In this document: piece after piece, positions 7,501 to 29,465 of the stretch
Layout of the letters: each line of letters starts with the position of its first letter
How positions within the stretch are numbered: position 1 is the stretch's first letter
Assembly: GCA_947568835.1 (NCBI GenBank)
Contig: OX387606.1
Span: 13,392,001 to 13,456,000 of the forward strand
Direction: 5' to 3'
DNA: 64,000 bases
DNA from: Protonemura montana
Taxonomy: Eukaryota > Arthropoda > Insecta > Plecoptera > Nemouridae
Notes under the pieces: model-generated
What the model was told of the DNA's origin: nothing
Databases searched by the model: none
The model's input: only the letters and a program-made list of their open reading frames with translations
Position numbers and translations under genes: made by a program

Positions 7501-10500
7501 TAACAATTTGGAATTTTTGTATAAAAATAATTCAATAATGATCAATTAATTCAATAATGATCCAAAAATGGTAATAATTCCATAAATTCTGTCGGGGGGC
7601 ACCAACTCCACCACCACCTACACCAGTTAGTTTTGCAGCACTTCACCACTGATAACTATTTTAATGATTGATTTGTGGTGTTTAAAGACACACTGTTTGG
7701 CAACTGACCCTGTGGCACTGGTCTAATTGTGTCGATGAATGAGCGGATGATGATGAACCTAACATTGCATAGAAGGGAGGAGGGGAAACTTGGTGCCTAC
7801 TCTTGTCGAAGAGCACCAAGGCGACCACCAGCTTAACGTCCCTTCCGAAGGACGGTACAACTCGAACAGCAGGATTACTCCACAAATACATTTCGTCGAG
7901 AGGTTGATAAGCAAGGCGACTGAAGTTGCTGTGCTAACTTGCATCCCTCCAACCTCTCTCTCAAACAGAACTGGTCATGTGTATGATGGTCACCCATCCT
8001 TTACCTGACTCAGTGTTGCTTAACTTCGGTGATCTCATGAGAACCGGTGTTTCCAACACGCCAAACCGTTCGGTAACCATTTAAAAACAGTTTATATTAT
8101 AGCAGCGATGGTCTTAATTGCCTTCATTGCCAGTCACTAGACTGGCTCGTACACTCACTCGCACTGCTGAGACAGTTAGGCCGGCAGACGTGGACCCAGC
8201 GCCGGTCGTGAACACCGAGCGAGGGCAGACACGGGCGGCAAAACGGAGAAGGTGGGACTTGCCAGTTCCAGGATCACCGACCAGCAACATGTGCGACTCA
8301 CCACGAGTACGTATTCCCGAAGCATCAACGCGTTGTACGCCTCCAGAAATTATCACTGCCAGCGCGAGCTTCACGATGTACAGTCCGTACACCTGCACGT
8401 GGGAAGAACAGTGTTTATTTTTGGGTCTTTTGGGTTTGTTTTGCTGGGAAATACTAGATTGTATGCAGTGTTTTGGTCTACCGAAGAGCTATCTCCTTGG
8501 GATTGCTAAATGGTGTACAGAAATTTAAAACTGTTATCATTGATTTTTCGGAGGTTTTGCGAGCTGTTGGTGTAGGTTTTAGTGGTTTTCAGTAATTGCT
8601 ATATTTTAAAGGGTTTTGAGTCCTAAAGAGGACTTCATTTCGGTACAGATCGCTACACCATATCCAGGGTGAGACTGTCTTCACAAAACTATATCATGAA
8701 AATAGATGCACAACCTACTTGTGGGCAAAATGATGCAATGATAAGATTTCTGGCAGCAAGACGCTGATGAGAGTTAACTTCCCAATAATCGGTAAATTCG
8801 TCTCTGGCCTCTTTTGTAATCAGCACGGTGGATCCTTGGTCGTTGCAAATCTGCACGTGGTTAGCTTTTAGCACCAGCTCAACGTCACTACGATTTCCAA
8901 CGCTTAAAGGGTGCCAGCGCCTCATTACGGTACCACTGGGAAAAGATAACAGTTTTAAGTGTTATATTCAAATGTTACCTATGATTCCTACTCAATATTG
9001 CTAAGAAGCACAATACTAGAGAAGTTACGTAAGAAGTTAAGTTCGGTTTTATAACTACTCTGAAATTGTTAGACCACCAAAAATTTGGTGATTGGTGTGG
9101 CGATCATATTACAATCGATGCATCTTCAACTGACAGACTGACATCAATTTATTACCAAACATTATTATAACATGCTTTAACAGCAGAGGCATTTCAGAGT
9201 AATTGGTACTTTATGTTCTCTGGTGAGGAAAGAACACGATTGTTTTTATTTTTTTTATTTGAAACATACTCACCACACTACTACATCATCTCCCGGCTTC
9301 ACAGAGCCTGCCAAATCGTCTTCTAGCGTAACCCACATTGAGCGCGGTATTGTTCCGACTTTCAACTTTGCCATTTGCTCTTGGATTTTGATCTCTTGAT
9401 AGTCTTTGTAATTTTTATGCTCAACAGTAGTGACAACAGTAAAATTTGTTCCACGGCATTCATCTTCTGGATTTTTACATCGAGTTGGTGAAGCAAATAT
9501 GTAGAATTGTTCATATTCTGCATTTATGGTGTTGACATGTTTACATTTAGTGCATAAATAGGCCCGTCTGAATTCTAGCATCTTTGAAGCTGTTGTCCGT
9601 ACAATAGTCCCAGTAACTCGTAAAAAGTTGTTGATGTCATCGTTGCGAGGAAAAGTGGTTCGGTGAAGTTCAGGACAGACTGGCAAAGCTGGAAAGATTT
9701 TTTTCTTTTAAGAATGAAGATTATTATCCATTGCATGCTTTTTATCCATAATACCCAAGATTTAATTGCAAAGTAAAGTGTTATTAGAAACTTTCTCACC
9801 TGTCATACGAGCATGCACATGTATTTTTAAAGTCCGTGGTCCACTCGTATCTTTTAAAAGTTCTGTTTTCAACAAGTGGTTTTGGGCATCGACCAGCGCT
9901 TTGTCACAAATTGGCAAGCAATGGTCTGCATTGGATAAAATCCCATCTCCTAGAGCCGTACTCTCCTCGAAAAGAGTCACGAAACTAAAAAAAAATATAT
10001 ACATATATATATTATCATGTTTACTCTTAGGCCCTAGTTGCAATGTATAAGTGTGTAGCGGGGTAGTTGGTAATCCGAACAAAATATAACCTATATAAAA
10101 CCCACACCCTCGAGATAGGGGCTGGGGTAAACAATCCAGCAAAGCTGGCATAGGAACGATAATACAGGGAGTTCAGACCACCACTTGGTAGCACAGCTTA
10201 ACAATATGAAATATTTATTTCAATGCTGATTGATGGCAGAGTCATTGGTAGCCAGTGGAGCGGTGAAATATATGGGCTCAATACGGTAAATCAAGAGAAG
10301 AACACACTTACTTAACAGTAATAGAAGAATGCTTAGTATCGTCTTCCAGTTCAAGAATTGTAAGTAAATCCCCTCGATGGTGTGATAGTGCATATTCTCT
10401 AAACATATCTGTAAAATATTAACTCTTAAACATAACCCTAAACAAACAATGGATCGAAATTTAGCATGCATTAAGATACTTTAAGAAGATAATTTAATTC

Positions 10501-10545
10501 TAGAAAGAATATACCTTGAAGTTTATTGTCTTCATTCGAACCCAT
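4562..10545 (-). CDS. MCM9: MCM9 DNA helicase, 10 exons, 1016 aa
   Basis: Exons in coding order: 10545-10515, 10408-10312, 9984-9800, 9688-9274, 8935-8719, 8392-8159, 7131-6809, 6518-6267, 6022-5850 and 5685-4562. They total 3051 nt with phases that join cleanly. The protein has the MCM N-terminal domain with a zinc-binding region (CTKCKH, then a CKNPEDEC pair) and an AAA+ core. The core shows Walker A GDPGTGKS (354-361), Walker B CCIDEF (413-418) and an arginine finger in SPLLSRFD (R484). The helicase core and winged-helix part end near residue 650. About 370 residues of charged, probably disordered tail follow and end in an acidic-aromatic [13 protein letters not shown]9 forms a hexamer with MCM8 for homologous recombination and fork repair in the nucleus. 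SPxxSRFD context, ATNPKG and [10 protein letters not shown] favour MCM9 over MCM2-8. Intron 6 holds a SINE. Confidence 0.95.
7668..8076 (-). mobile_element. 5S rRNA-derived SINE, copy 1 (in MCM9 intron 6)
   Basis: On the minus strand the head (about 8076 down to 7984) reads like 5S rRNA. It contains GATCACCGAAGTTAAGCA, then GGATGGGTGACC, the internal control region of 5S genes. A body of about 300 bp follows, with GGGACGTTAA and a tail ending in CACCACAAATCAA. The flanks AACTATTTTAAT and AACCATTTAAAA look like a decayed target duplication. The element is intronic and in the same orientation as MCM9. Confidence 0.8.
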
Positions 10546-13073
10546 TTCCGATTGAGAGTTATGTCACTAAATATATTGCTGCGTTCATGGATTCTTTAAT
10601 AGATACATTCTTCAAAAAGCCACATTGCAATTTCGCGCCATTTTTTGACGAACAAACATGTACAAACATTCAAAAAGACTAGTTACCAAAAGAGGGCACT
10701 TTTATAAGTATAAAGGTACATTCGCATTCGTTCATACAACGAAAGTGTAGCAATTGAAAAGAATTTTAATCATTTCACTCCACTGAAGTTTGCAATTATT
10801 TAACACAGCACACTCACAGCACCAATAAAAAGAATTACCACACTTTGGAGTAGTTTTGCCATGGGACTTCCATTCTAATCACAAGTAGTAAGTAAAATTA
10901 TGATGGTTCAGTGGGTTAGAAGAAGCTCAACACAGAGTTGAAGAATTTAGTCAAACTAGCCCAGTCTTCTTTGAGGAATTTCCAACCATTTGAAACTGCT
11001 ATATTAATTCCAGGTGAGATCGCTAAATTTACTCCATAAACTCATAGTTTTAATGACTATGGTTAGAGACTGAAAGTGAACAAGAGAATACGAACACATC
11101 GTCTCTTTTGCATCATCCCAGCTCTGATAATATTAAAGATTGGAGTCTTTAATTGCCAACGGAACTCAGTCCCGGCGACATTTACTGCATCGACTGGTAA
11201 GATTAAACCTCCGGTGAAAATTGCTCAAGATCACTTCAAAAATTTGAATTTAATATCAAACATATCATCCATCAAGAGACTTTTACTCACTGTGATAAGC
11301 ACCTATATGCACGTTACCCGATTTCAGTAATAAAAATTAGCAGTACCTAAAAGAAAATTACTACCATTTTTACTCAGTTGAAACTTAAGTAAGAACGATC
11401 AAGTACAAGGAAAAATATAAATATTATAAATATTTTGTTTTGCATTAAACCATGTGAAACACAAACAAAAATACAAGCAAAATCGACATCAGATCGTCAA
11501 ACTGAACCTTCTTCCAGATCTCGTCAACAGATCCACTTGTGTCCTTAAAGAGGATCTGCGAGCCATTATTCTGGATTTCTGGCACCAGAACACGAGGCAG
11601 ATGCTTTTCCCCAATGCCGATGCGACCGTCGTTGTGGAACTGTATGGACTGGCATTAATCACCGTCTGCATCCGAAGCCAGTATCAGAAGGTGTTCAACA
11701 CTGCTCTATGCTACCACAAGCCTGAAACATGAATCAAGCAGTGTGAATCAAGCCTTGATTTTCTGTATTGTTAAGGGTATGCTAGAAAGTCTGCAAAATA
11801 ATTTTGTAAGCATTCTTGTTTGGGATTGAGGAAGGAAATGAAGTTAGCAAACACTCAGAAAGATCCAGAAAGAAACCCTACAGAAAAATGGTCAGGAATC
11901 TGGAATAATGTCTGCATATCTGAATTATTTTGTTTAAATGTATGAGTTAACTTTGTTAAAAGAGTGAGGGGGACGTTTAAGCGGCTTATCTTTGACTTTT
12001 TCCAAGGAGGTTTGCTTGATAGTAATAAAGGGTGTAGGTAATCAAATGTACTCTGCTAAAAGTGTAGGACATTTTCATCAACATTTTTCTCCTTGCTGAA
12101 CAGGGCAAGAAGTGGCTAAGTTTTATTCCGTCGTAAACTAGCTTCATGGTAAACTTGCGCAAAAATTATCTCTCCTCCCTTTCATCCTTTTTTCCCTTTA
12201 TCCTTTAGTTATCTCCATCAACTAACCCCCTCCCCCTTGACTTAACACACACATTCCAAAACTCTTTCTCTCTAAAAACAAACCTTACGTAACAATTTAA
12301 AATGCCCAAAATCAAAATCCTACTCCCAAACTCGTTGTAGACCGCAAATCTCCTTGACAACTGTAAAAGCTTTGCCCTTTGCCGACAGCGCGGCTATTGC
12401 ATCGCCGCTGGAAGGATAATATGTAGATGCGTCTGTGGGTACACCGGTTCTCTTGAGATCATCGACGTTAGTTGTCTACTTCCAAGTTTATCTCCTTATC
12501 CTAATGTCGATAATCTTATCAGCAGTGCATGATTTTAATGGCTATTATCCTGCCAACTGGTCTAAGCTTGTAAACGCTTATGATTTTACGATTTTTATCA
12601 AATTAATTTGCATGATTAGATTCTATTCTGAAAGCAGATTTTGGCCGATGCCGGATCAAAGTTTTCGGACGTCGGATAGCCAAGCTATCGGAAGTCAAAG
12701 TAGAATACGGAGATTTCTTTTATGGTCGAAATCAGCAGGTTTTCATTGCACGTGCTTTTTTTTATACTTGGCGTCGACTCGAGGCTAGCGATAACGCCCC
12801 GGCTTTTACCAAAAACTGAAATTTCCTGTGGTCTTGTTTGCTACTCAGTTATTTTTTATTTTACCCTATGGGGTCGTCACACTAAGCCATCAAATATGTG
12901 AATTTTGGCTCATTTTCAAAACCTCACCCCGTCGAAGATTTTCAAAATATCAAAATCTGATAAGATAGAAACCATAGACACACTTTTCCTCTATACACTC
13001 ATTTTTTGCAGATTTTTTCGAGTAATTTTAGACCCCCAAAAGTGTGACCGCGTGGACCTCTGCTCGCATACAC

Positions 13074-13335
13074 TGTGCTGGGTCAGGTATTGGATGGGTG
13101 ATCATCATACTCATTACCAGTTCTGTTCGGGAGAGAGATCACAGGGAAAGTGGTTAGAGGTGCATGCGTCTTTCTCATCAACCTCTCGATAGTATGGATT
13201 TTTGGAGGAATCCTGATTTTGGCATTATACCGTCCTTTGGAAGGTACGCTAAACCGTTGGTCCCCTTTGTGCTCTTCGACAGGAAGGTTACTTGCCACAC
13301 CGGGTTTCCCATCGGGCCTCCTAGCAAGCATATCA
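13074..13335 (+). mobile_element. 5S-derived SINE, copy 2, 5'-truncated
   Basis: Plus-strand copy that begins inside the 5S-like head (GGTATTGGATGGGTGA) and continues through the shared body, including ACCGTCCTTTGGAAGG and GTGCTCTTCGACAGGA. The first half of the 5S-like head and the tail are missing. The body is clearly related to the copies at 7.7, 13.8 and 29.0 kb. Confidence 0.7.
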
Positions 13336-13541
13336 CGGAAATCAACAACTAAAAAACGGATCCTCCCGAGCCTAACATCAAGAACTTACTAGCATTTCAT
13401 TTTAGAACATAACATATACATAGTTGTCAGGCAGGTAAAATTTGCAAAAGACTCTGAATAGTACCAACATATACAAAATAAAATTCTATAAAGGGCAGGA
13501 ATTTGGCGGTGGAATGAGTGTCCAGACTCCAGCGTCAGGTG

Positions 13542-13620
13542 CAGTGGCGTAACTAAGTAACCCTGGGCCCGGGGGCAAGATTTTTCGTTGGGCCCCCTCC
13601 CCCCCTCCCCTCCCGCACAC
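13542..13620 (+). mobile_element. Isolated hAT-type terminal repeat
   Basis: CAGTGGCGTAACTA followed by GGGCCCGGGGGCAAG and a C-rich stretch matches the usual ends of non-autonomous hAT elements. No matching opposite end (a CACTG-terminated inverted copy) was found downstream, so this is a truncated element or a solo end. The right border is uncertain. Confidence 0.45.
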
Positions 13621-13807
13621 CACAAAGAAAGAGGTCTGAAAAAAATTAACATTTCTAATGTTTCTGTCATTTATATACTTTCACTTGCGAGTGCTGAAAA
13701 ATATTCTTAAAAAATATCTAGTTACTAGAAATAAACGATTCTTTGCGATTAAGTAATTAATCGAGATCACCGAAAGTGATCCAAGGTGAAAAATGACATA
13801 TAGTTGT

Positions 13808-14138
13808 TTGATTTGTGGTGTTTAACGACGCGCTGTTTTGACAACTGGCCCCGCGGCACTGGTCTAATGGCGTCGGTGAATGAGAAATAGATGATGAACC
13901 TAACCTAGCCTTGAAGGGAGGAAGGGAATCCCGGTACTAGCACGTAGCCGTCGAGAGGTTGATAAGCAAGGTGAATGAAGTTGTAGTACCTTTCTTCTTT
14001 TCTCTAAGGTAGTACTAACTTGCATCCCTCCAACCTCTCTCCCAAACTGAATTGGTCATGAGTATAATGGTCACCCATCCAATACCGAAACGGTGATCCC
14101 ATGAGAATCAGTGTTTCCATCACACCATCCCGTTCGGT
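13808..14138 (-). mobile_element. 5S-derived SINE, copy 3, internally deleted
   Basis: Minus-strand copy. The 5S-like head is at the right end (about 14138-14070): GATGGGTGACC is changed to GATGGGTGACCAT, and the TTAAGCA stretch is lost. The body is shortened and lacks the GGGACGTTAA segment. The tail at the left end shows the shared CACCACAAATCAA (inverted). It sits inside the intron of trefoil copy A. Confidence 0.65.
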
Positions 14139-16285
14139 TAAAACACATCCTTGCAGTGAGTTGTCAATCAACCTGGTTTGAAAGAAAAGAGCAGGGAAAT
14201 TGATCACACCTCGGTCTTTGATCTTGATTCCGTGCCCATGAACACAACGAGCCAAGGCTACAAGTTCGGCTGTAAGTTCGACTGTCTTGGTGGTACGGGT
14301 CAAGCCGGCACTGGCACGGTAACCATGGCAATATCCATGCTACATGCGGAATCAAAACAACTAGATGCAATTCTATTCTCGGCGATTTACTTTTAGGTTC
14401 AAATTCAATGAAAGACAAAATCATCACTGCCGTGGATTCTGCTACACGACGGTGTTGTGTATTGAATAAGAAAATACCAGTTTTGAGATGGACCGAACGT
14501 TTTCGCAAGTTTTTCACGGGTGCGACGCTTTTTCTCCAATGTTGAAGCACCAGAAAAACAAAATTCCGTTAACAAACGATTAATTTTTCGGTCACAAATC
14601 AAAAAGACGATATATTGATGCCACTAAAAAGATTTTTCTCTCTGTTCATCTTGTTGCGAACGCGGTATGTTATGCAACTGTCACTTATTATAACACTGCA
14701 ATTGTAAGATGGTTACCGGAATTAGGGGGCATTCTTTATAAGTTAAAGTGTATGTCTGTCATAGTCAAAACCCAAAACTTACCTTAGTCGCGTTGATGTT
14801 ATCCTGAGCTGGAAGAATGTACCACTTCACACTAAACCAGACAATTAAGAATTAGCCCAAATAGGCAGACGAACCGAACAGATATGGAGACACTGGCGCA
14901 TTGGTGGTTATTGGTAGGTATTGAACGTTGATTGGAGCCGTCAATAGACAACAGGAGTTCAGGTGGGAAAACACTCAATTGACCAGGTGTATCATAATAT
15001 TGTCATTTACCCAATAGAGTGCGACTGCTTGCAGAGACATGCACGTGCTTTGACCAAAAGTGCGTGGGCAAGCTGAAGGGTGGAAATCCACCCAGAGCAA
15101 CACACACTGAGGTCTTGACGCTGCAAGGATTCGTGTTTTACGGAAAGAAGCAGGCCACTTTTGAAATGGGAGATGATTTTATTTTCACAACCCACAGGTA
15201 TTTATGAGGGAGTTTCATTGAGAGGTACGATTTTTAACATTTGATCGCAACGTGATGGCCAAGGGGGCCAGTTTCTCGGTCCAAATTGGAGAAATGACTT
15301 TAAACACTTGTCATGCGTGCAGGATTACACAATATGGTAAGAGCTGATAGAACTTACGATATGTATTTCCTGAAGTGGTGGTAGGCATATGCGGGATGCC
15401 TAAGCATTTCGGCGCATTCACCTGGCTACGACGCCGTTTTCTCCGTCGGTCAAAAAGAGGCTCCTCTGACCGGCAAGAGTGAAACATCAAGAGGCTTGGT
15501 TAAAGTTTTAATTAAAATCACGTGACGCGTCACGTACCTTTTTTTTTTCTTTAAAATGAATTCCACCTAACGTACTTGGGACTAACCGTTTCAATTGGTC
15601 CGTTTTATAAATCCGATTCATCGTTTCTTGTGGTCCCAGGTAAGTGAAGAGTTATTAAAAATCACTCCACTCGGCTGGTCGTCACTCGTCAAATGCAACG
15701 AATCATCTTATCATATAGACAGGAATTCCCTGTTCCCTCACCTGTCTCAAAATCTACGTATCTTAAGGTGGAACACATTCTCACCATGCTGTCTGCCACT
15801 ATTTGATGTATTTTCCTCTTGGAGAGACGGATGGAGGCAGATAATTTGTTTGCGTTTTGAAGTAAGTCCTGCTCCAGGTGAAATAGAGCTCTGCGTTGTG
15901 GCGTTACAAAGAAGATTTTTCCGGGAGAATCAAAATTAAAAAAATCAAACAAACGAACTGAGATTTTAAAACGTCGCTATTAGTAGAGCCTATGGTTAGA
16001 ATAGTAGGTAAGTCATAGGCTTTGCGGAAAATACAGAAATAACATGCAGTTTTTCCACCTTCCTATGCAGGCCTATACCTAAAGGCATATATATTTAACA
16101 ATATATATTTAAGTTAGACTGCCCTACAAAGCTGGCATTGTATATTACGGTGAGTTCAGAGCACCACTTGGTAGCACAGCTTAACAAAATAAAATAGTTC
16201 AATGCTACTGGTTTTTAGACTCATGTCCATTTTTTTTGTACTTTATTCAATGCCGTTTGTTGGCAGTCATTGGTAGAGCGATGAA

Positions 16286-16314: not shown

Positions 16315-16336
16315 ATCGAGAGATGAACACACTTAC

Positions 16337-16566
16337 TCAAAAGTAATAGAGAAATGTTTGGTATCGTCTTCCAGTTCAAGAATCGTAAGCAAATCCCCTC
16401 GAGTGAAAATTCTCTGAGCATATCTACCAAATATACACTCTTAAACTTAACCCTATAAAACCATGAATCGAGATTTTACATCCATTAAAAACCCATTGTT
16501 GAGTAAAAGCATTAATTATAGACAGAAAAGACCATGCGGTTTATGATTTTCATTCTTCTTACCCAT
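16337..16566 (-). pseudogene. MCM9 exon 1-2 ghost (duplicated 5' end)
   Basis: Copy of the first two MCM9 exons in unit B. The exon 2 copy (16423-16337) is 87 nt against 97 nt in the intact gene. The 10-nt loss in the SHHRGD region shifts the frame, although the IL-ELEDDT nucleotides and the GTAAGT donor remain. The exon 1 copy begins with an ATG at 16566 (MGKKNENHK against MGSNEDNKL) but has lost the donor. The 5' flank (CAATTTCGCG-like block near 16.63 kb) is conserved with the functional MCM9 promoter. No later MCM9 exon follows, so it cannot make the helicase. Confidence 0.85.
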
Positions 16567-17189
16567 TTCCTATTGCTATTTGCTACGTTCAGGACTCTTC
16601 CAAGAGATACGTTTTTCAGAAAGCCACATGGTAATTTCGCGACATTTTCTGACGAACAAACAGGTACATAAATTCATAACGAATGGAGTTACAAATAGAA
16701 AACACTTTAATGAATGCATTATAAACGGTACAATATTACCACCTACATATAAAAATATTTACTAGAATAGGCCCATACAACTACAATGTATTTGTCAACA
16801 GCCAATAAACAAATATCAAACAAATATCAAATAGTCATTCAACGAAAGAGTAACAATTAAATAGAATTTCAGTGATTCCACTTCACAAAAGTCTTTGATT
16901 TATAAGCTATGTGCAGCACCAACCAAAATATCATGAAAGCAGATGGGGCCTGGTTGAAACCAAATGTTAACTAGTACAATAGCCAGGAGTCTTCCAACCC
17001 AATCACCCAATCTAACCCAATTTAAGCTCAGAAATGACAATAATTTATAATGTACTGTAAATTTTTTTTTTTTTTGCTAAATAAACAACTTCAAACGTAA
17101 GAAGAAGCTCAACTCGGCAGTTAATGATTTGGTACAACCAGGCCTCAGTCTTAGAGGGATTTTCAATCCCATTTGAAAATGTTACTTTA

Positions 17190-17282
17190 AAATAAATATT
17201 AATATATAATAAATATTATAAATAAAATAAATAAAAATAATAATATTATTATTTATAATATTATATATATTATATATAATAT
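17190..17282. repeat. AT low-complexity tract
   Basis: About 90 bp made only of A and T, with TATAAT/ATTATA microrepeats that can fold on themselves. It is absent at the matching place in unit A, so it expanded after the duplication. Confidence 0.7.
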
Positions 17283-17674
17283 TGACCAGATATTGGCAAT
17301 TGACCAGAGAATGTGAACACATTGTCTAAATTCCATCATCCCAGCTCAAATAATATTACAGAGAGGAGACTCCAGGCACCAACGGACCTCAGTCTCGGTA
17401 ACGTTCACTGCATCGACCGATAAAAGGCAACTCCAGTGAAAATTGCTCAGGATCGTTTGAACATTTTATCGAAAGTAAATAAATCTAGCACATAGATTCA
17501 AGATACTTCGACTAACTAGGATAAGCACCCAGATGCTTATTACCCGATTTCAAAAAGAAACACGGGCAGTACCAAAAAGCAAATTACAGTTTAAAATCAA
17601 TTTTCACTGTCACATTATTTTTAGAAGTTGTCATCGTGGAATGCTCACTCTCAAGTCACCTTGAGAATTTTTGG

Positions 17675-18717
17675 CAGGGGCGGCTCGTGAGGGAGGTTTG
17701 CGGGGCGGCTGCCCTCCCTAGCATTTTCGACAGAATAAAAGTATAATTGTTATTACTATTATTATTGTTCTACGCGTTTTGTGTGTTTTAAAATTGGTGC
17801 TACTTTCGGAATGCGAAAAAACGCGCTATTTGCGTCGCGCCAGTAGACAGTGCATGTCTAGTGCGTGAGTCTGAGTGGTAATGACCTTGACCGTGTGTCT
17901 GTCGAGCCCAGCCTCGGCCAGCCTTGAGCAGTCGCCGGGCTGAGCTAGCAGCGAGAGCGAGTGAGACACAATACATAATAGACACAACGATACACACGAT
18001 CGCACATTTTTTTTTAATAATTTCAAAATAATAGTACTACTAGCCTGACTTTCTGACCCCATCCTGTTGCACGTACTGTGTACGTTTTTGTGCAATGAAA
18101 ATTAATCCGATGTGTGACTTGACAGCTATAATAAGGAAATCTCTTTAAATTTGAAACTATTTTTTTTTTGTGAGAAAATAATGAACAAGTGTTTTTATTT
18201 TCTTCTAAATCCAATTTTGAATAAAATATACCTGTTTAAAATGTTTGCGTTTCAATCTCGTACGAAAACGAGGGTCGCCATTTTTATGACGTATAGTGAA
18301 ATCTGACGTCAGTATGACGTCAAAAAACCTCAAAAACCGGGAGCGAACGCAAAGTGACGTCAGAACTACCTGTAGTTAATCACAGCTCCTTTTCATCCGC
18401 CACAAGAATTGATATTTTAGCCATTCTTAAAACAAATAGAAATAGAACAGTTATGATCGGATTATAAAAAGAAAAAATACATCAGATTTTATTTTAAATC
18501 GGTATTTGAACAAAACGATAATAATTAAATAATAATCTTAAGGAGATTTCCCTATTCACTGATAACTTTTTTTTAAATATCACATGTTGAATTGTAATGT
18601 TACAATATTGAAATCCTACTACAGTCTTCAATACTTATGGTGCTGGTGGCGAGGGGGGGGGGGGGGGAGAAATTTTACTGCCGCCCCTCCAAGAAAAACA
18701 GTCACGAGCCGCCACTG
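17675..18717. mobile_element. Non-autonomous hAT-like DNA transposon
   Basis: The ends are CAGGGGCGGCTCGTGA and, inverted, CAGTGGCGGCTCGTGA. The flanking 8-bp duplications are ATTTTTGG (17667-17674) and ATTTTTGA (18718-18725), differing by one base. TIRs of this form with 8-bp target duplications are typical of hAT elements. The 1043 bp hold no transposase. The element carries a 15-base G run (18653-18667) and three TGACGTCA sites. It is absent from the matching place in unit A. Confidence 0.85.
18304..18362. promoter_or_regulatory. Cluster of three perfect TGACGTCA (CRE-type) sites
   Basis: The palindrome TGACGTCA occurs at 18304-18311, 18315-18322 and 18355-18362, inside the hAT-like element. 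It is the consensus site for CREB/ATF-type bZIP factors. A fourth copy lies at 20870-20877, outside the element. Function is inferred only. Confidence 0.4.
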
Positions 18718-19561
18718 ATTTTTGACAAGAGGTGTCTACGAAGTTTCGTTTTAAATCGATCCTATCACATACAAACGCAACTCGACATCAGACTGCCCAA
18801 CGGAACCTTCTTCCAGATCTCGTCAGCAGATTCAATTTTTTCCTTATCCTTAATGCGGACCTGCGAGCCACTATTCTGGCCTTCTGGCACCAGAATGCGA
18901 AGCAGATTTTTTTCCCCAAAGCCGATACGACCGTCGTTGTTAAAATGTATGGATTGACAACGATCACCGTCTGCCATCGAAGCCAGCATCAGAACCTGTT
19001 CCACTCTTCCCTCATCTAGCACGAGGCTGAAACAGGAATCAAGCATTGTAGCATCACATTTTGTCACGTGACCGATTGGCACTGGAACTAAACCTCACTA
19101 TCAATTGTTTGTTCCTTGATTTTCTATGTTTTTAAGGATATGTAGTATATAAAATCTTCAAAATCATTTTTTACACATTTTCTTCTAGGGTTGAGGGAAT
19201 AACTGTTGCAGGCAAACGCTTGCGCTTGGGAAGATCTTGAAAGAAACTCCCGAAGAAAAATACCAACGAATCTGGAAGTATGGATTTTACACATCATTAT
19301 TATCTTGTGTACATTTATAAATTAACTTTGGTGAGGAGGAAGGGGTATGTTTTAGTGGTTTATCTAAAGATTTAATCTTTGATTTGACCTTTTCCAAAGA
19401 TTTAACGAGGGCTTGCTCGAAAGTAATCAACTGAACTCTGCAAAATGGTGTTGAAAATTATGGTTTTTAGACTCATGTCTACTTGATTTATCCTTAGCAC
19501 TAGTTTTAAGAAAAACTATTTGAAATGGGTTTTGCATGCTAAGTAAAGGAAAACTAAATTT

Positions 19562-19600: not shown

Positions 19601-22204
19601 AGATTTGAGCAGTCCTGACAATTTTCCAATAACATTGTTGATGTTGATGAAATGTTCATCAAAAATGTCATCCTAGCTAGACATGGCAACAAGTGGCTAT
19701 GTTTCAAATCGTCGAAATAAATGGTTCATCGATAAAATCAGGCAAAAATGATCTCTTTTCTCTTTTCTCTTTTCTCTTTCAATTTATTTTATTCCTCTCC
19801 GTCACCCCCTCCCCCCCAGCCCTTCTAACCGCTCCGTACACACACGTTGTCTAACGCTTTCTCACTAAAACAAACTTGTACACGCAACATTTTAAAATAT
19901 CCATAAAATTAAAAATCAATCTGTCGTCAAACTCACCCATACTCATTGTAGACCCTCAGATCTTCTTCACAAACATAGAATCTCTGCCCTTTGCCAGCGG
20001 CACCACTTTTGCGTCTCTGCAGAGTGGGATACTGGCCGACTTTGCAGTCCACGAGATTCTTTCCTGGTGCACAGCAATCCAGGTACAGACCAGAGCTCAA
20101 GTGCTTAAGGCGAAAGTGAGATCTGGACATCTGGAATGAGACAAACAAAAGATGTTGCTCAGGCACTGGAGGACACTGGAGACGGGGCAGTTAATCCATC
20201 TCGCTCAGTCCCCAATTTACATCGATTGGTGTGGTTAGGTAAAGGTTACGTTCTTTACTGCCTATACTTTCTACGAACGAACCTATTCTACCCTTATTTT
20301 TCTCGCACTGCCTACAAATCAAAATTCTTTCTTATCCTGCCTATTCTTGTGCTGCCTACGTTAGGAAGTGTCACGTGATTCCGAAAAATTCCAAACAAAC
20401 TGATAGATATTGTGCAAAAACGCATCGCGCCCAATGGTTTAATAATTTATTTGCGTTCATAAGCTGTGAAAATATAGAGACTCCTCTCTGGACCTCTTCT
20501 GTGATAGTGTAAAATTCCAAAAGTCAGCTCCCGAGCATTAACTCCTAGCAACCTACTTCCGTCTACTACTAACAAACAAAACCACCCGAGTCTAGGATAC
20601 ATTTTTCACAAGCAGGTCATTTTGGAACGTATACGTTTTGAACAAGGCAGGCGCAATTTTTAAACGTGTCCTTTAATAGAACCTTTTTAAAAATTAACCT
20701 CTTACGAAGGGACCTTCGCGGTCGAATGTGTTTACAGAGACAAGACGCCCAGATAGTCGCATTTATACGTGTAAAAGAAATAATTCGCCTAGCCTGGCCG
20801 CCGCCGCCTAGCCTGGCCGCCGCAGCCGCGGCCGACCGTGAACCCTTCCACCGCGTAGCTCTCAATGAATGACGTCACGCTGCAAGATTTACTACGAGAG
20901 CGACCTACGTTGGAGTGCACATGTGAATCCACGAGCGCGCCTGAAGGGCCAGGAAGAGTATCACTAAACACAGTAAAAGGGACGGTGACGATATTTAGGG
21001 ACACGTTGGATCGTTGAAACTTACGCAAATTCCGCGCGGTGGGTTCCATATCTAATTCTTATCTAATATCACTATTTCAGAATGTTGTAATATTTTCGCG
21101 AGGCTTCACATTTTGACGGTGACACTATGCTACGATCTAGGAGGCTCGTCTCCTAGATGTTAAACGTCACGAGTCTTGAGCCTAACCATGGGCTAAACTG
21201 TTGTGGCGGAGGGAGGCAAGACTGATAGAGAGAGACGGATAATCTGAAGCACACATGCTTGAAGCCAATATCCATGCTACATGCGGAATCTAAGCGACTG
21301 GATGAATTACACACTCGGCGATTGACTTTTAGGTTCAAATTCAATGGAAGTCAAAATCATCCCTGCCACGATTATGCTACGCGACGATATCCATGAAATG
21401 GACCTTTTTGAAACCGGATGTTAGTTCTGCTAGTTTAGCTCCTTCATTTGAAACACTATGACGCCCAAAATGCCTGCAATGAACTAAATGTGTATGTTAA
21501 ATCGCGATATGTTACGCAACTTTCACTGATAGTTACCATGCAACTGCAAGATGATTACTCCCGTTGCCAGCATTTTAGAGGTTTACTTCAAAGAAAAAGT
21601 GTATGTCCAGTAAAAACAATTCCAAAACGTACCTTAGCCCTGTTGGTGTTAATCTGAGCTCGAGGAATGCACCACTTGACACAAAATCAAAAAATGAAAA
21701 TAGAGTCAAGCGAATAATTGCACTTGATGCTGTGTCAAATAGACAACCAAAAATTAACAGAAGAACTGAACGTAACAGGTTGAACTCAGGCACTGCGAAC
21801 TTGAACGCAGGTTGCAGGCACTGGCGCGCCGGGAGCGATCGGTCTGCGCGGACGCTGTAAGAAATTAGGCCATCTCACGTCATTTGTAGCCAATATATAG
21901 AAAGAGTTCAGAAGGTGGGAGAGTACCTCATTGGTCAGGGTGGTCGTGCTATATATTCAATCAAAGATGGCCGCGAGTGGGGTTGCATGCAGTGACATGC
22001 ACGTGGGCGCATACGTTCGTCGTGCGTTTCCCTCTTACGGACATTAGCTGGCCACTTTTAAATAGGGAGAGAATTTTATATTTATAAAATGATTTACAGG
22101 TATTTCTTGGGTCCCTTCAGTGAGAGGAGCGAATTTTATCATTTGATTACGAAATTTTGACCATGGTGGTATTGGTTTGACCGTTGAGTGTAGGTGTAAT
22201 TTTA

Positions 22205-23181: not shown

Positions 23182-25221
23182 GTGGGTCATTCCATGTCAA
23201 ATCAACCGAGCAAAAAAACGTCACCTCTTAGAAATCGACCAAACTTGGTAGGATGATGATTACATGATTTCTTTGGTGGTATATTTTTTTGTTTGCCTCT
23301 GAGTCAAATGGTTCGCCTGGTACGGCCCCGAAACGGCGGGACGGCACTGAATTTTGGGGTACACGCGTCTTTTTTCTTTCTCAAATTGCGTCGGCTGTAG
23401 ATAAGATAGATTAATGAAAAAATTTTCTATTAAAGGTATTAAATGTTGTTTCATATTACATAAATTTTGTTTAGAAAAAAATCCCCCCCTTCCCCCATTT
23501 CATTTGTTCTACCCCTCTTATCTTTCAAAGTGCTATTTTTATTTTATTAAAAAAATTCAATTTGTTTGCTATAAGTATAAACTACATTTTCTGAAAGTTT
23601 CAGAGTGGGACAACGAGGGAATTTTAAGATAAAAATTAAAAAGTATCTTCGTGTGTAAAAAATCGCTTGTTTTTACATGTGTGTACGCGTATATGGGATA
23701 GTCCACACAAAATCAACACATCATTAAACCTGACCAACTTTTATGTGAAATAAAAGTATGCTTACACATAAAGTAGGCTTAGAGCAGACTTTCACTATTT
23801 TTTTCAAAATTTTTTCCCGCACCGTTCATGCGCAGTAGCAGTCCGAACTTTAGCACTTTTCAGTGTTTTGGTTCGCCTTCCACGACGTTTGGGCTTCTAG
23901 CTAACGACCCGTTAAAGATAACGAAAAAATAAAAACACTGATAGAAAGCTGAGAAAATTTAGAAAAGTTCGAATTGAAAAAAAAACTTAGAAATATAAAA
24001 ACTACGCTTAATGTACAAACATCCCCTAAATTAACAATAACAACAATTTACTCTACTTTTAACTTAACGAAAATTTAAGAGAACCTCACCAAAGAACTGG
24101 CCCAGATGATCTGAAAGTTTCGTGACGGCTAACGCGCCAGTTTCTTAAAAAAAAAAAAATCTCGATTAAATATGTGTAGAAGGTAAATTAGCACATCTCG
24201 TAAAATTGAGAAATTCCGATTCGATTCAGAAATCGTGATAAAAAATTATCTGAAAAACTTTAGCGAGTTCCATCACGAAACTTTCAGATAAGCTTAACCA
24301 GTTCTTTGGTGATGTTTCTTTAAATTTCCGTCAAGTTAAAAGTAGGGTAAATCATTTTTCTTCTCAATTTAGGGGATGTTTGTACATTAAGCGTAGTTTT
24401 TATATTTTTAAGTTTTTTTCTTCGAAATTTTCGAAATTTTCTCGGCTTTCTATCTGTGTTTTTATTTTTTCGTTATCTTTAACGGGTCGTTAGCTAGAAG
24501 CCCAAACGTCGTGGAAGGCGAACCAAAACACTGAAAAGTGCTAAAGTTGGGACTGCTACTGCGCATAAACGGTGCGGGACAAAATTTTGAAAAAATGTGC
24601 GAATGTCTGCTCTAAGCCTACTTTATGCGTAAGCATACTTTTATTTCACATAAAAGTTGGTCAGGTTTAATGATGTGTTGATTTTGTGTGAACTTTCCCA
24701 TATACGCGTACACACATGTAAAAACAAGCGATTTTTTACACACGACGATACTATTTAATTTTTATCTCAAAATTCCCTCGTTGTCCCACTCTGAAACTTT
24801 TATCAGATGGAGTTTATACTCGAAGCTATCACATAAATTTTTTTAAAGTAAATAAAATAGTACTTTGAAAGATAAAAGGGGTATAAAAAATAAAAAGGGG
24901 GAAGGGGGGGATTTTTTTTTAAACAAAATTGATGTTTTATGAAACAACATTTAATACCTTTCATAGACATTTTTTTCATTAATCTATCTTAACTACAGCC
25001 GACGCAATTTGAGAAAGAAAAGAGGCGCGTGTACCCCAAAATTCAGTGCCGTCCCGCCGTTTTGGGGCCGTACCGGGCGAACCATTTGACTCAGAGGCAA
25101 ACGAAAAAATATACCAACAAAAGAAATCATGTAATCATCATCCTACCAAGTTTGGTCGATTTCTAAGAGGTGACGGTCAATTTTCCAAAAAAATTGGTTG
25201 AATTGACATGGAATGACCCAC
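23182..25221. mobile_element. 2.04 kb foldback element (near-perfect long palindrome)
   Basis: The left end GTGGGTCATTCCATGTCAA is matched, inverted, by the right end at 25221. The two arms of about 950 bp are near-identical in inverse order through their whole length: the TACGGCCCCGAAACGGCGGG region (23.32 kb) mirrors 25.07 kb, ATCATTAAACCTGACCAACT (23.72 kb) mirrors 24.66 kb, and CTGAAAGTTTCGTGA (24.11 kb) mirrors 24.27 kb. A spacer of about 130 bp lies at 24.13-24.26 kb. There are no long ORFs. Target duplications are not obvious. It sits in unit B only. Confidence 0.85.
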
Positions 25222-25301
25222 ATGTTCCTACTAGATCTTTTTAAGAATCCGTATACACGTGTCTTTTCTTGTAGTCCCAGGTAAGTGAAGAGTTATTGAA
25301 C

Positions 25302-25710
25302 CCGTCCTGTAGGGCCCGTCCTGTAGGGCCCGTCCTGTTGTCTGTGGGTGAAAGGCCCACCCTGGTGTCCATGGGTGGAAGGTCCGCCCTGGTGTCCATG
25401 GGTGAAAGGCCCACCCTGATGTCCGTGGGTGAAAGGCCCACCCTGGTGTCCATGGGTGAAAGGCCCACCCTGGTGTCCGTGGGTGAAAGGCCCACCCTGG
25501 TGTCCATGGGTGAAAGGCCCACCCTGGTGTCCATAGGTGAAAGGCCCACCCTGGTGTCCATGGGTAAAAAGGCCCACCCTGGTGTCCATGGGTGAAAGGT
25601 CCACCCTGGTGTCCATGGGTGAAAGGCCCACCCTGGTGTCCGCGGGTGAAAGGTCCGCCCTGATGTCCGTGGGTGGACGGACATCAGGGCGGACCTTTCA
25701 CCCTCGGACA
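25302..25710. repeat. 27-bp VNTR ending in an inverted unit
   Basis: Three copies of a 14-bp CCCGTCCTGTAGGG-like unit (25302-25339) are followed by about 12 tandem copies of a 27-bp unit (GTGTCCATGGGTGAAAGG plus CCCACCCTG). Unit variants differ by ATG/GTG, CAT/CGT and CCC/TCC. One copy has an extra base (GGTAAAAAGG). The last unit (25644-25670) is repeated as an exact inverse copy (25677-25703) after a 6-base loop. Because 27 is a multiple of three, long open frames appear on both strands; these are not evidence of a gene. Confidence 0.9.
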
Positions 25711-25714
25711 ACAG

Positions 25715-28700
25715 AGAGATCAGATTATTGACAGCCATACTGTAAACTATCAGGGCAAACACCATGGTCAACATCCCCTGTCTCGAGTACGTGGTAAAAA
25801 CGACCCCTGTAAAAATTGACTTGGAGGTAGAAAGAACTGGACAGCACATACCCCAAGCCAAATTAGCAACAGAAAATCGAACGATACCAGTAAAGACTTC
25901 ACCATATTCTATCAAAACATTAGATCGATCTGGGGGGAAAACTAGAGATCTCGAAATAAGATAAAGAAAAAGGAATAGACATTATATTATTAACCGAACA
26001 TTGGTAAAATAAGAACAATATAGATTCCATAGTGATAGAAGGCTTTCAACGATCATCCATATTGGTACGAGAAGCCCCATATACGGCGGTACCTGTTTAT
26101 TTACAAGACACTCATCATTCATGGCAAGACGTTACCGAAAGATCAGATTTAGTGAAACTAAGCATAGAAAAGGTCTTTGAATGCTCGGCAATCGAGATCA
26201 AAAGCTATAATATAATCGTAATTTATATTTATAGATCACCCTGTGGTTGTGTAAAAATGTTCATGGAAAAATTAGGACAGACAATAGCAAAAATATCTCA
26301 TGAAAACGGGAATAAAACAATACTCATTACTGGAGATATAAATTTGAATACTATGAACAATCACCCCATAAAACAAGAATTAAATACATTACTGAGTTCA
26401 TATAACCTCCGACTGCTAATTAACGAGCCAACACGGGTCACTTACCATACGAAAAGCTGCATTGACAACGTAATCACAAACCTGAGTAGAGAAGAAGTGA
26501 CGTGCAAAATTGAGGAAACCGGATTATCAGACCACAAAGCAATAACAATACTTTTTAAATCGAAAGAGTCTAATAGATCAAATAAACAGGGAGATAAACT
26601 TGGTTTCACCAAAAAGAGGTACTGCAATAAGATTAACTACAAAAAAATGATCTCACTTCTACAAAGACAGGGCTGGGAGAAATTGAAACAAGATCTAACT
26701 TTAAATTAAAAAATTAAAAAATTTCTGAACATATTCCACGTCCACTTCAACAAAGCATACCCAAAACAAGTGAGAAAAATCAGACCCCGGAAAAACTCAG
26801 CGTGGATAACAAAAGGAATAGTAATTTCTTGCAAACACAAACGCAGGATTATTGAATTAGGCAAATAAATAAATAGTGACATTTGGCACAACCATATCAA
26901 AAACTATACCAAATGCTTAAAAAAAGTAATAAACGCAGCAAAAAAACAATGTATCCATACATGCATAGCTAAATCTGATAATATAAGTAAAGCAGTTTGG
27001 AACACATAGATAAAGAATTGAGAAGAAACAACAAAAGAAACTTCAAAAATATAAAACTACCAGTAAATGGGAAGGAAATAGTGGCAGCATACGACGTCGC
27101 AAGCAGCTTTAATAACTTCTTTCTTAACAATATAAAAAGCATGAAATACTTAAATACCAACAAAACTGATACACATCCGGCCATACGTAAACTTGGTACT
27201 AGCTGTCACAAATCGATGTTTCTATTCCCAGTGACGGAAACAGAGATAAAACATATTATATACAAACTAAAGAACAAAATGAGATCTGGACTTGATGAAA
27301 TCCCCATTACCGTAATAAAAAAATGTGCAATATATCTGCTTGAGCCATTAGCGGAGCCAATTAACACGTCACAAGCTACAGGTAATTTCCCTAACATATA
27401 AGACAGAAAACAGGAGTGATCCAAACAACTATCGCCCAGTACAACTACTACCGTCATTTTCCAAAATACTCGAAAAAGTAGTGTACAACAGACTCGTTAA
27501 CTTCATGGAAAAAAATGGTCTATTAATAAAACAACAACATGGATTTAGGAGAAACAAATCAACTGAAACAGCTATCTTTCAATATTTAATAAATATCACT
27601 TCTTCTTTAAGTCAAGGAAAGCATACAGTCGGGATACTAAAGCATTCGACTCCGTAAACCACGAAATTTTACTGCGAAAGTTAAATCACTATGGAGTGCG
27701 TGGCACAGCAAACAAATGGTGCAGATCTTTCCTTGAAAATAGGAAACAACGAGTGGTAATCAGTGAAAAAAATTCAGAAAATAATATAGGAATTCACTTT
27801 TCTGATGAGGGGCATAATGAGCAAGGAGTCCCGCAAGGAGCTATCCTGGCTCCTTTGCTTTTCTTAATTTACGTAAATGATATGCCTGCTAACATAAAAG
27901 ATGGTAAAGTGACTATCTTTGCAGATGATACAAGTATGCTTATAACAGACAACTCTTTATAGGGTGTGAACGAAAAAGCAAACTTGGCAATGAAAGAATT
28001 ATCAAACTGGTTAAATTCCAATCAACTGAAACTAAACGCAAGCAAAACAAAGGGTATATCGTTCAAAACAAGGGGCTCTCAGGTCAATCACATAAACATC
28101 AACGTCGGTAAAGAAATATTTATAAAAAAAAAGTAAAAGAAACCACTTTTCTGGGCATCGAACTTGACCACGAATTAAATTGGAAGGTCACATCAACAAA
28201 GTACAGAGCAAATTGGCTTAACTATGCTATGCCATAAGAGCTCTTAAGCCGACCACTTCGATAAACACCCTAAAAATAACATACCTAAATAACATACCTA
28301 AAAAGAAAAAAATATTTACTCTCCAAAAAAGAGCAGTAAACATTATCCTGAAACTTGACCAAAAGTCCACATGCCGAAACCAGTTTAAAAAATTAAAAAA
28401 TTAACATTTCCAAGCCTATACTAACTCAATCTACTGTATTTTATAAGAAAAAACTCTAGTTAATTCCCGGTACCAAAGCCCCAAAACAAAACTAGAAACA
28501 AAGGAAACTTTGAAATTGAACCAGAAAATAGAACTCAAATTAGAAATCAGGCCAAACAACAAGGACTGAGACTCTTCAATATGCTACCGGAGACTTTTAA
28601 GAACCCGACTGTACAAAAATTTAAAACAAGACTAAAAAATGTCTTAGTGGAACTAGAATTTTACAATATGGACGAGTTTCTGTGTTTTTGTCAGAATGCT

Positions 28701-28870
28701 AAAAATGTGTAAATACTTTGTAATTTAGGACTCAACTGATGTTTTAGAATTAATTTGATTGTTTCTCAAATAGAATATATAATGTAATAAAAAATTAATT
28801 TTAAGTACCTACCTATGACATGTCTGTACATTCAAAGGAATTCTTTGGACAATAATCAAATACAAGTAAA
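25715..28870 (+). mobile_element. Defective non-LTR retrotransposon (LINE, Jockey/CR1-like)
   Basis: An endonuclease region of the exonuclease-endonuclease-phosphatase type spans about 25.9-26.6 kb (GIDIILLTEH, GDINLN near 26.33 kb, IDNVITN, SDHKA near 26.53 kb). A reverse transcriptase follows at about 27.24-28.12 kb (KAFDSVNHEILL, QGVPQGA, FADDTS near 27.92 kb, QLKLNASKTK). Several frameshifts and stops separate the pieces (for example after ATGNFPNI at 27.4 kb and after TDNSL at 27.96 kb), so it is inactive. It interrupts a block that is continuous in unit A (GAAGAGTTATT / AAAATCACTCC). Whether the VNTR upstream is its 5' UTR is unknown. Confidence 0.85.
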
Positions 28871-29012
28871 TACAAAATCACTCCACCCAGTTGGTCGTCA
28901 CTCAGAATGCAGGGGACTAAGGTAAGTAGAGGTAAGTAGAGGTATTCTTCGTACCTTGGCTTGTGTCCTCCTAGGGCGGTACCCCCTCTAAATGATGTAT
29001 TTTCCTCTTGAA

Positions 29013-29452
29013 TTAATTGATTTGTGGGGTTTAACGACTCACTGTTTTGACAACGGGCACTGTGGTACTGGTCTTATGGCGTCAGTGAATGAGTAGATGA
29101 TGACGAGGATGATGATGAACCTAACATAGCCTAGAAGGGAGGAGGGGAAACCCGGTGCCGGCACATGGCCTACTCCTGTTGAAAAGTACCAAGGGGATAA
29201 CCGGTTTAACGTCCCTTCCGAAGGACGGTACAATGCGAAAAACAGGACTACCCCACAAATCCAGGCTTTCGAGAGGTTGATAAACGAGGCGAGTGAAGTG
29301 GTTGTACTAACTTTCATCCCTTCAACCTCTCTCCCGAACAGAACTAGTCATGTGATTGATGGTCACCCACCCAATACCTGACATCAGCGCAGTGTTGCTT
29401 AACTTCTGTGATCTCATGAGAACCAGTGTTTCCATCACGTCAAACCATTACG
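29013..29452 (-). mobile_element. 5S-derived SINE, copy 4, full length with target duplication
   Basis: Full-length minus-strand copy of about 440 bp. The head (29452 to about 29360) matches 5S rRNA: GGTTCTCATGAGATCAC, AGAAGTTAAGCAACA, then TATTGGGTGGGTGACC. The body has CCGTCCTTCGGAAGGGACG and GTGCCGGCACCGGG. The tail reads CGTTAAACCCCACAAATCAA. The 13-bp flanks TTTTCCTCTTGAA (29000-29012) and TTTTTCTCTTGAA (29453-29465) are the target duplication. Unit A carries the uninterrupted site (TTTTCCTCTTGGA near 15.81 kb). Confidence 0.9.
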
Positions 29453-29465
29453 TTTTTCTCTTGAA

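What the first reader, a model, noticed from the sequence alone, without database searches (positions are those of the whole stretch)
7668..29452. SINE family headed by 5S rRNA sequence
Four copies (7.7, 13.1, 13.8, 29.0 kb) share a head matching arthropod 5S rRNA, including GATCACCGAAGTTAAGCA and GGATGGGTGACC, the region that serves as the 5S internal promoter. Most SINEs are tRNA-derived; 5S-derived (SINE3-type) families are rarer.
Basis: partly seen in the sequence, partly recalled or inferred. Interest (0 to 1): 0.7.

Follow-up and report, generated by a model that had tools for sequence, protein, structure and literature searches.

The report
5S-headed SINE with multiplied promoter
The window holds four copies of a small copy-and-paste DNA element that starts with a piece of the cell's 5S ribosomal RNA gene, and elsewhere in the same genome the switch of this element has been multiplied into many short tandem arrays, mostly near chromosome ends where this could be tested.

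Summary
The finding is real and its reading is right. Four diverged copies of a ~440-bp SINE lie at 7.7, 13.1, 13.8 and 29.0 kb; its head is a 5S rRNA fragment (Rfam 52.7 bits for copy 1; consensus head 64 of 76 bases identical to this genome's own 5S gene). Only two of the four copies keep the whole head. The family is dispersed (3,743 exact head words genome-wide), has a simple-repeat tail and target-site duplications (TSDs): a 5S-derived SINE, a class known from fish, mammals and insects.

The less ordinary part lies outside the window. Many copies elsewhere carry the 5S control region (boxes A, IE, C plus ~47 bp of body) as a 91-bp tandem array, often between an intact head and tail: 16,001 exact unit-to-unit junctions. 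Two junction variants that could be mapped lie almost wholly within 3.5 Mb of contig ends. Multi-unit elements were retroposed as such: a complete 4-unit copy has a perfect 15-bp TSD; a 7-unit copy starting mid-unit has a perfect 14-bp one. The nearest parallel found is SINE-derived satellites of squamate reptiles (tRNA SINEs, subtelomeric). I call it a new variant of a known kind. Transcription and function are untested; the arrays show no sign of promoter constraint.

The parts
7663..8076 (-). SINE copy 1, full length, one promoter unit
   Evidence: nhmmer 2.7e-139; Rfam 5S_rRNA 52.7 bits at 8074-7964; imperfect flanking repeat AAATGGTTA/AAATAGTTA, score 6, below my cut-off of 8
8011..8026 (-). 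copy 1 box A (AAGTTAAGCAACACTG), the same 16 bases that begin the tandem unit elsewhere
   Evidence: sequence; box names and places are recalled
8004..8009 (-). copy 1 intermediate element (GTCAGG)
   Evidence: sequence; box name recalled
7988..7999 (-). copy 1 box C core (GGATGGGTGACC)
   Evidence: exact match; box name recalled
13057..13331 (+). SINE copy 2, lacks the 5' part of the head (box A) and the 3' tail
   Evidence: nhmmer 2.2e-84; model positions 59-322
13803..14141 (-). SINE copy 3, deletions remove box A, the start of IE and part of the body; tail present
   Evidence: nhmmer hits 14141-13948 and 13951-13803; model 1-188 and 283-438; unit row
29012..29454 (-). SINE copy 4, full length, one promoter unit, with target-site duplication TTCAAGAGAAAAA / TTCAAGAGGAAAA
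   Evidence: nhmmer 1.2e-140; Rfam 5S 37.7 bits; TSD score 10
12441..12470 (+). probable scrap of a SINE or 5S head
   Evidence: blastn 90% over 30 bases, E 1.2e-5; nhmmer E 0.076; sequence

Best explanation
The repeat is a 5S rRNA-derived SINE. Shown: a ~92-nt head like the host 5S gene up to box C, a ~300-nt body, a short constant 3' end (...GTCGTTAAACACCACAAAT) with a simple-repeat tail, target-site duplications, thousands of dispersed copies. Inferred: RNA polymerase III reads it from the internal 5S-type promoter, and an unidentified LINE copies the RNA back into DNA. In one lineage the promoter became a tandem array. The 6-nt word AAGTTA occurs both at box A and 91 nt downstream in the body; slippage, template switching or unequal exchange between the two (inferred) gave a 91-bp unit that starts at box A and holds the whole control region. 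Elements with several units were themselves retroposed (shown best for L065 and L049 by perfect target-site duplications). Near chromosome ends the arrays then grew further, presumably by unequal exchange (inferred from array length, repeating orders of unit subtypes, and the many unrelated minisatellites in distal stretches).
For: 5S head. SINE hallmarks: TSD test, tails. Exact words: 3,743 heads, 3,944 body joins, 2,278 tails, each with 0 in the reversed control. Tandem units: 16,001 exact junctions, control 0; 91-bp period by TRF; complete head-(unit)n-body-tail elements with n = 2 to 6. Retroposed arrays: L065, 4 units, complete, perfect 15-bp TSD, 7 Mb from the contig end; L049, 7 units, starts mid-unit, perfect 14-bp TSD; 8 of 26 elements with two or more units score 8 or more, against 14 of 650 mismatched flank pairs, 2.2%. 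Units differ little more between elements (6.0%, 12,155 pairs) than within one (5.0%, 565 pairs). Distal bias: 45 of 46 clusters and 52 of 56 clusters within 3.5 Mb of a contig end, 24% and 22% expected. Tandem repeats of period 20-200 cover on average 2,394 of 10,000 bases in the 4 distal systematic stretches and 61 in the 16 interior ones.
Against: No partner LINE was found: none of the three reverse-transcriptase hits listed on C1 (of 150 scored in the genome) has an exact tail word within 10 kb. No transcript data. In multi-unit arrays the control region is no more conserved than the rest of the unit (2.7% against 3.0% mismatches, p 0.36; box C 4.4%), so nothing shows that extra promoters are used. 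18 of the 26 multi-unit elements have no clear TSD (two of these are cut by the stretch), so some arrays may be local expansions or decayed copies. Low divergence of multi-unit elements is partly ascertainment, since most were picked by an exact 22-base junction. The distal bias partly follows SINE density, which climbs toward the right end of C1.
Confidence: 0.85

Rival explanations
1. All arrays are local: single-unit SINEs inserted everywhere and then expanded in place, again and again, between the same AAGTTA words, mostly in chromosome ends that favour tandem growth. Multi-unit elements are not mobile as such.
For: Strong distal bias; distal systematic stretches carry about 40 times more minisatellite than interior ones (4 against 16 stretches); repeating or alternating unit subtypes in L009 and L049, seen by eye; PMC10702118 proposes initial duplication by unequal recombination followed by amplification for squamate SINE satellites.
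Against: L049 begins in the middle of a unit and has a perfect 14-bp TSD, so its RNA already crossed a junction. Between-element unit divergence is close to within-element. Multi-unit copies exist in the interior of C1 (3 of 22 word pairs), one with a perfect 15-bp TSD. Position 70 is G in the majority of later units in 21 of 30 multi-unit elements but in 6 of 21 scorable one-unit elements (p 0.005).
Confidence: 0.25
2. The arrays are an independent satellite DNA that merely shares sequence with the SINE, or 5S pseudogene arrays from the true 5S locus.
For: Some arrays lack a SINE tail or head in the stretch read (L009, L059, L060). One locus, L047, has a 92-bp unit that is the bare 5S-like head.
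Against: Each 91-bp unit contains ~47 bp of SINE body that is absent from the 5S gene, and many fetched arrays pass into SINE body and tail. The true 5S genes fetched (L029-L038) match the SINE model only over positions 15-93.
Confidence: 0.04
3. The head is a decayed tRNA or 7SL head that resembles 5S.
For: None found.
Against: ARAGORN finds no tRNA in the window; Rfam at gathering score reports only 5S; 64 of 76 identity to the host 5S gene.
Confidence: 0.01

Closest known systems
5S rRNA-derived SINEs (SINE3 class) of insects: HaSE3 of Helicoverpa (PMC3272025), PxSE4/PxSE5 of Plutella (PMC8010984)
   Same: 5S-type head with boxes A, IE and C; few hundred bp; simple-repeat tail; PxSE4 is 389 bp with 4,415 copies (passages read).
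   Different: The passages that I read report no tandemly repeated promoter. Sequence kinship of the bodies could not be tested, since no Repbase or SINEBase is on hand.
SINE-derived satellites (sSat) of squamate reptiles, Vassetzky et al. 2023 (PMC10702118)
   Same: A tandem unit made of the 3' part of the SINE head with a promoter box plus the start of the body (67 bp in snakes, 91 bp here), terminal units that run on into the SINE, subtelomeric preference, alternating subtypes in some arrays (outline, passages and sections 3, 6, 18, 19 read).
   Different: Those SINEs are tRNA-derived and the snake unit holds box B; here the unit holds the whole 5S control region. There arrays mostly keep one SINE end, and arrays with both ends are called minor variants; here many keep both, some with TSD. 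The host here is not a reptile: its histones look arthropod (recalled).
SVA-type composite retroposons (recalled, not looked up)
   Same: A retroposed non-autonomous element with an internal variable-number tandem repeat.
   Different: In SVA the repeat is not a 5S promoter, and the parts are of other origin.
Amplified 5S rDNA of Esox pikes (PMC5437419) and 5S-bearing Cassandra elements of plants (PMC10853983, PMC7215508)
   Same: Very many copies of a 5S control region in a genome (Esox passages read; the Cassandra papers seen in search listings only).
   Different: Esox arrays are whole 5S genes in (peri)centromeric regions; Cassandra is an LTR element.

Membership tests
5S rRNA-derived SINE (SINE3 class) | Head derived from 5S rRNA | tested here: met
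   Rfam 52.7 bits for copy 1; 64/76 identity of the consensus head to the host 5S gene, best shuffle 29 against 104
5S rRNA-derived SINE (SINE3 class) | Boxes A, IE and C of a type 1 Pol III promoter in 5S-like spacing | tested here: met
   Ungapped alignment over 5S 17-92 spans all three; box places recalled
5S rRNA-derived SINE (SINE3 class) | Dispersed copies with target-site duplications | tested here: met
   13 of 23 elements at score 8 or more against 1.6% of 506 control pairs
5S rRNA-derived SINE (SINE3 class) | 3' end shared with a partner LINE, simple-repeat tail | tested here: inconclusive
   Tail (AATAAT or CAATCAAT repeats) seen; no LINE with the same end found, on C1 only
5S rRNA-derived SINE (SINE3 class) | Pol III transcription | not testable with these tools
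   No RNA data. The 440-nt consensus has no run of four T, which agrees with a Pol III transcript but does not show one
5S rRNA-derived SINE (SINE3 class) | Body homologous to a named SINE3 / Deu-domain family | not tested
   A likeness of CCTTCGGAAGGGACGTTAAGCC to the Deu domain is recalled only; no reference sequence on hand
SINE-derived satellite (sSat) | Tandem repeat of a defined SINE segment | tested here: met
   91-bp unit = model 49-139; 16,001 exact junctions
SINE-derived satellite (sSat) | Terminal units extended into the SINE | tested here: met
SINE-derived satellite (sSat) | Preference for chromosome ends | tested here: met
   45 of 46 clusters, 52 of 56, for two junction variants; contig ends are taken as chromosome ends; the main junction word could be listed only to 2.3 Mb of C1
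SINE-derived satellite (sSat) | Very long, homogenised arrays (hundreds of units) | tested here: inconclusive
   Longest array read has 21 units (L060); one place list spans ~49 units; no survey of the longest arrays was made

The most novel reading that the evidence does not exclude
A SINE lineage that multiplied its own Pol III promoter and spreads as a retroposing promoter array: every 91-bp unit is a working 5S-type start site, so longer elements make more RNA and also shorter RNAs from inner units (headless copies such as L049 would be their offspring), and some 16,000 or more extra TFIIIA sites, many at chromosome ends, compete with the true 5S genes.
Probability: 0.12. Interest if true: 0.8.

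Novelty: new variant of a known kind. Interest (0 to 1): 0.55.

Why it matters
Two papers on insect 5S SINEs cite the idea that a retroposed 5S promoter stays silent or weak because type 1 promoters lean on upstream signals (passages of PMC8010984 and PMC3272025). A family that repeats the control region inside the element is a natural test of that idea. It also bears on a question that the squamate SINE-satellite paper left open, whether such satellites are restricted to squamates: here the same SINE region and a chromosome-end location recur in an unrelated animal with an unrelated promoter. Because head, array, body, tail and TSD are often all intact here, the steps from SINE to satellite can be read in one genome.

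Tried and rejected
tRNA or 7SL head: rejected. Independent satellite or 5S pseudogene arrays: rejected because units contain SINE body. Constraint on the promoter in arrays: tested, none seen. Internal-promoter starts: of the headless arrays fetched, 5' ends lie at model 40-60 (seven elements) and 88-110 (five); the second group is 30-52 nt before the next box A, near the 48 nt that a 5S start would give but scattered, so I do not claim it. Partner LINE: not found. Viral contigs: 0 hits for two exact patterns. A junction pattern guessed for the 92-bp arrays gave 0 hits; the guess was wrong, as one search showed. Species: not identified; the COX1 family search (PF00115) did not complete. The script ended with a file error after its search table was printed; its search was repeated.

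Rows dropped before counts: place lists are capped at the first 100. In one search the places on C3 and C5 were left out (C3 length not printed, C5 list cut off), those on C3. In one search nine heads with 92-bp spacing were left out of 100 before pairing, pairs more than 12 units apart were not formed (this drops the pair 550656-552689 seen, which spans another head), and join and tail lists were cut near 27.3 Mb, where the head list ends. In one search, L047, the 5S gene loci and L001 (the same locus as copy 1) were left out; some of its 22 one-unit elements, such as L052, also carry part of a second unit.
Full report
What is in the window. Four copies of one repeat lie at 8076-7663 (-), 13057-13331 (+), 14141-13803 (-) and 29454-29012 (-). 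A profile built from them gives no further significant hit; one 30-base stretch at 12441-12470 is a probable scrap of the head (blastn E 1.2e-5, nhmmer E 0.076). Copy 1 matches the Rfam 5S model end to end at 52.7 bits; copy 4 matches at 37.7 bits, just under the cut-off of 38. ARAGORN finds no tRNA and Rfam reports nothing but 5S at gathering score.

The host genome. The window is part of G000 (258,480,905 bases, 34 contigs), at C4:13,392,001-13,456,000, in the middle of a 25.9-Mb contig. Its true 5S genes are 119 nt long; 47 places were scored, many in a ~9.5-kb repeated block at the start of C11 with three 5S genes each. Frames beside them read as histones H2A and H2B (recognised by eye) and Rfam reports a histone 3' stem-loop there. 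The histones look arthropod to me from memory; the species was not identified.

Head against the host 5S gene. A consensus of 17 full-length rows (one locus counted twice) aligned without gaps to the 5S gene over 5S positions 17-92: score 104, which is 64 matches in 76 columns; the best of 500 shuffles scored 29. The likeness stops just after box C, so the SINE kept the internal control region and lacks the 3' end of 5S.

SINE anatomy. A profile of 14 single-unit copies has 440 positions: head to about 92, body, and a constant 3' end GTCGTTAAACACCACAAAT followed by AATAAT- or CAATCAAT-like simple repeats. Of 23 elements tested, 13 have flanking repeats that score 8 or more, against 1.6% of 506 mismatched flank pairs. 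Copy 4 is one of the 13; copies 1 and 3 (score 6 each) are not; copy 2 was not tested. The consensus has no run of four T. The DNA search scored 40 places of 6,795 first-look candidates, so counts come from exact words instead: 3,743 heads (some of these lie in arrays of a second, 92-bp kind), 3,944 head-to-body joins and 2,278 tails, each with 0 in the reversed control. In 20 systematic 10-kb stretches of C1, C2 and C4, 8 stretches hold 18 rows of this SINE; 10 of the rows lie in the 16 stretches more than 3.5 Mb from a contig end.

The promoter array. In those same 20 stretches, 4 of 13 elements with at least one complete promoter unit have more than one: 15 units in L009, 3 in L017, 4 and 7 in L024; these three stretches lie at 1 to 3 Mb from a contig start. 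Tandem Repeats Finder gives a period of 91 bp. The unit is model 49-139: it starts with AAGTTAAGCAACACTG, which is box A of 5S, contains GTCAGG and GGATGGGTGACC, and ends after ~47 bp of body. Both edges carry AAGTTA, which offers an obvious route for the first duplication. The junction word GGATGAAAGTTAAGCAACACTG occurs 16,001 times in the genome, its reversed control 0 times. In L009 and L017, 11 of 16 true junctions have that exact word, and in L024 5 of about 10, so the real number is larger. 16,001 x 91 bp is 1.46 Mb, or 0.56% of the assembly.

Multi-unit elements. From the first 100 listed junctions, which form 26 clusters in the first 2.3 Mb of C1, I fetched 23 clusters, and later three interior loci found by word spacing. 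Many are complete: head, n units, body, tail, for example L043 (2), L041 (3), L042 (5), L040 and L044 (6), L058 (5), L065 (4), L063 (5). Of 26 elements with two or more units, 8 have TSD score 8 or more, against 14 of 650 mismatched flank pairs; two of the 26 (L048, L057) are cut by the stretch, and two of the three interior ones (L063, L064) have no clear TSD. L065 has a perfect 15-bp repeat GTGGCACATACTTGG and lies 7 Mb from the contig end. L049 lacks the head, starts mid-unit, has 7 complete units, and is flanked by a perfect 14-bp repeat AAACACTGGACTCC, of which the first A's could belong to the tail: its RNA must already have crossed at least one junction.

Age and shared variants. Over 182 units from 52 elements (30 with several units, 22 with one complete unit), pairwise divergence is 5.0% within an element, 6.0% between multi-unit elements and 12.8% between one-unit elements. 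Most multi-unit elements were chosen by an exact junction word, which favours young ones, so the contrast with one-unit copies is partly built in; the near equality of within and between is less affected. Position 70 is G in the majority of later units in 21 of 30 multi-unit elements and in 6 of 21 scorable one-unit elements (Fisher p 0.005). These results favour a multi-unit lineage that spread by retroposition over many independent local births. Local growth occurs too: by eye, L009 begins with a repeating order of three unit subtypes and L049 alternates two. L047 is a different array, seven copies of a 92-bp unit that is the bare 5S-like head, running into the 91-bp kind.

Where the arrays lie. 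The main junction word is listed only for the first 2.3 Mb of C1, so I used two rarer variants, clustered at 10 kb. Variant 1 (335 sites, first 100 listed): 45 of 46 clusters on C1, C2 and C4 are within 3.5 Mb of a contig end, 24% expected. Variant 2 (616 sites, first 100 listed): 52 of 56 clusters on C1 and C2, 22% expected. Among head-to-join or head-to-tail pairs on C1, 9 of 14 in the first 3.5 Mb have two or more units against 3 of 22 further in (p 0.003). The SINE itself is also denser distally: 4.6 exact joins per Mb in the first 3.5 Mb of C1 against 2.9 per Mb between 3.5 and 29.62 Mb, with a climb on the right side (12 in Mb 27, 17 in Mb 29; the list ends at 30.03 Mb). SINE density therefore explains part of the bias, but the unit-number test does not depend on it. 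Distal regions favour tandem repeats in general: repeats of period 20-200 cover on average 2,394 of 10,000 bases in the 4 distal systematic stretches and 61 in the 16 interior ones. The window is mid-contig and its copies are single-unit, in line with this.

What was not found. No sign of constraint on the control region within arrays (2.7% against 3.0% mismatches, p 0.36; box C, at 4.4%, is the most variable part compared). No partner LINE: of 150 scored reverse-transcriptase hits, the three on C1 have no exact SINE tail word within 10 kb; hits on other contigs could not be compared because the tail list covers C1 only. No match in viral contigs for two exact patterns.

Against the literature. 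Passages of PMC3272025 and PMC8010984 describe insect 5S SINEs with the same kind of head and mention SINE3-1_TC of Tribolium; the passages shown do not mention promoter arrays. The outline, passages and four sections of PMC10702118 describe SINE-derived satellites in squamates: tRNA SINEs, a 67-bp unit with box B and the start of the body in snakes, subtelomeric bias, and the remark that it is uncertain whether they are restricted to squamates. A search for the phrase 'SINE-derived satellite' finds that paper and one review in which the phrase stands only in the reference list. Passages on nine highly conserved SINE domains (PMC6887750) and on arthropod transposons (PMC6327564) named no such array. 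My wider searches (in only 25 of 46, 19 of 20 and 20 of 85 papers were listed) showed no title or abstract opening that describes a 5S-derived SINE with a tandem promoter. The library holds open-licence papers only, and Repbase, Dfam and SINEBase were not available, so this says nothing about databases or subscription journals.

Verdict. As given, the finding is correct and fairly ordinary: a 5S-headed SINE, a known, uncommon class. The tandem promoter array makes it a new variant, close in form to squamate SINE satellites but built on a 5S promoter, in a different animal group, and retroposed with several units in the best-preserved cases.

Noticed in passing
window 23219-25175: Nested inverted repeats with arms up to 445 bp at 91% complementarity, a fold-back element.
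   Followed up: no
window 25295-25737: Minisatellite of 27-bp period; Rfam reports several weak miRNA-precursor and one other match at about 25630-25715, all below gathering score.
   Followed up: no
window 26008-26709 (+): Fragment of a LINE endonuclease domain (PF14529, E 7e-10).
   Followed up: no
window 10290-11744 and 16315-19049; 14369-14431 and 21305-21367: Diverged direct repeats 6-7.3 kb apart that suggest a tandemly duplicated gene or block; its identity was not worked out (frames listed).
   Followed up: partly
window about 29467-29484: A run of G next to the 5' end of SINE copy 4.
   Followed up: no
G000 C11:70-105743; L032-L038: 5S genes sit beside histone genes (H2A and H2B by eye, histone 3' stem-loop by Rfam), three 5S genes per ~9.5-kb unit.
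   Followed up: partly
L047 (G000 C1:1224900-1226000) and C1:923572-923777: A second array type with a 92-bp unit, the whole 5S-like head repeated, joined in L047 to 91-bp units.
   Followed up: partly
L050, L051, L060: Three multi-unit copies begin at exactly the same base, model position 47, two bases before box A; one (L051) has a 7-bp flanking repeat there. Cause unknown.
   Followed up: no
L009, L023, L024: Distal stretches rich in unrelated minisatellites; a 41-bp unit is shared, on opposite strands, by L009 (C1) and L024 (C4), and L023 holds a 168-bp array.
   Followed up: partly
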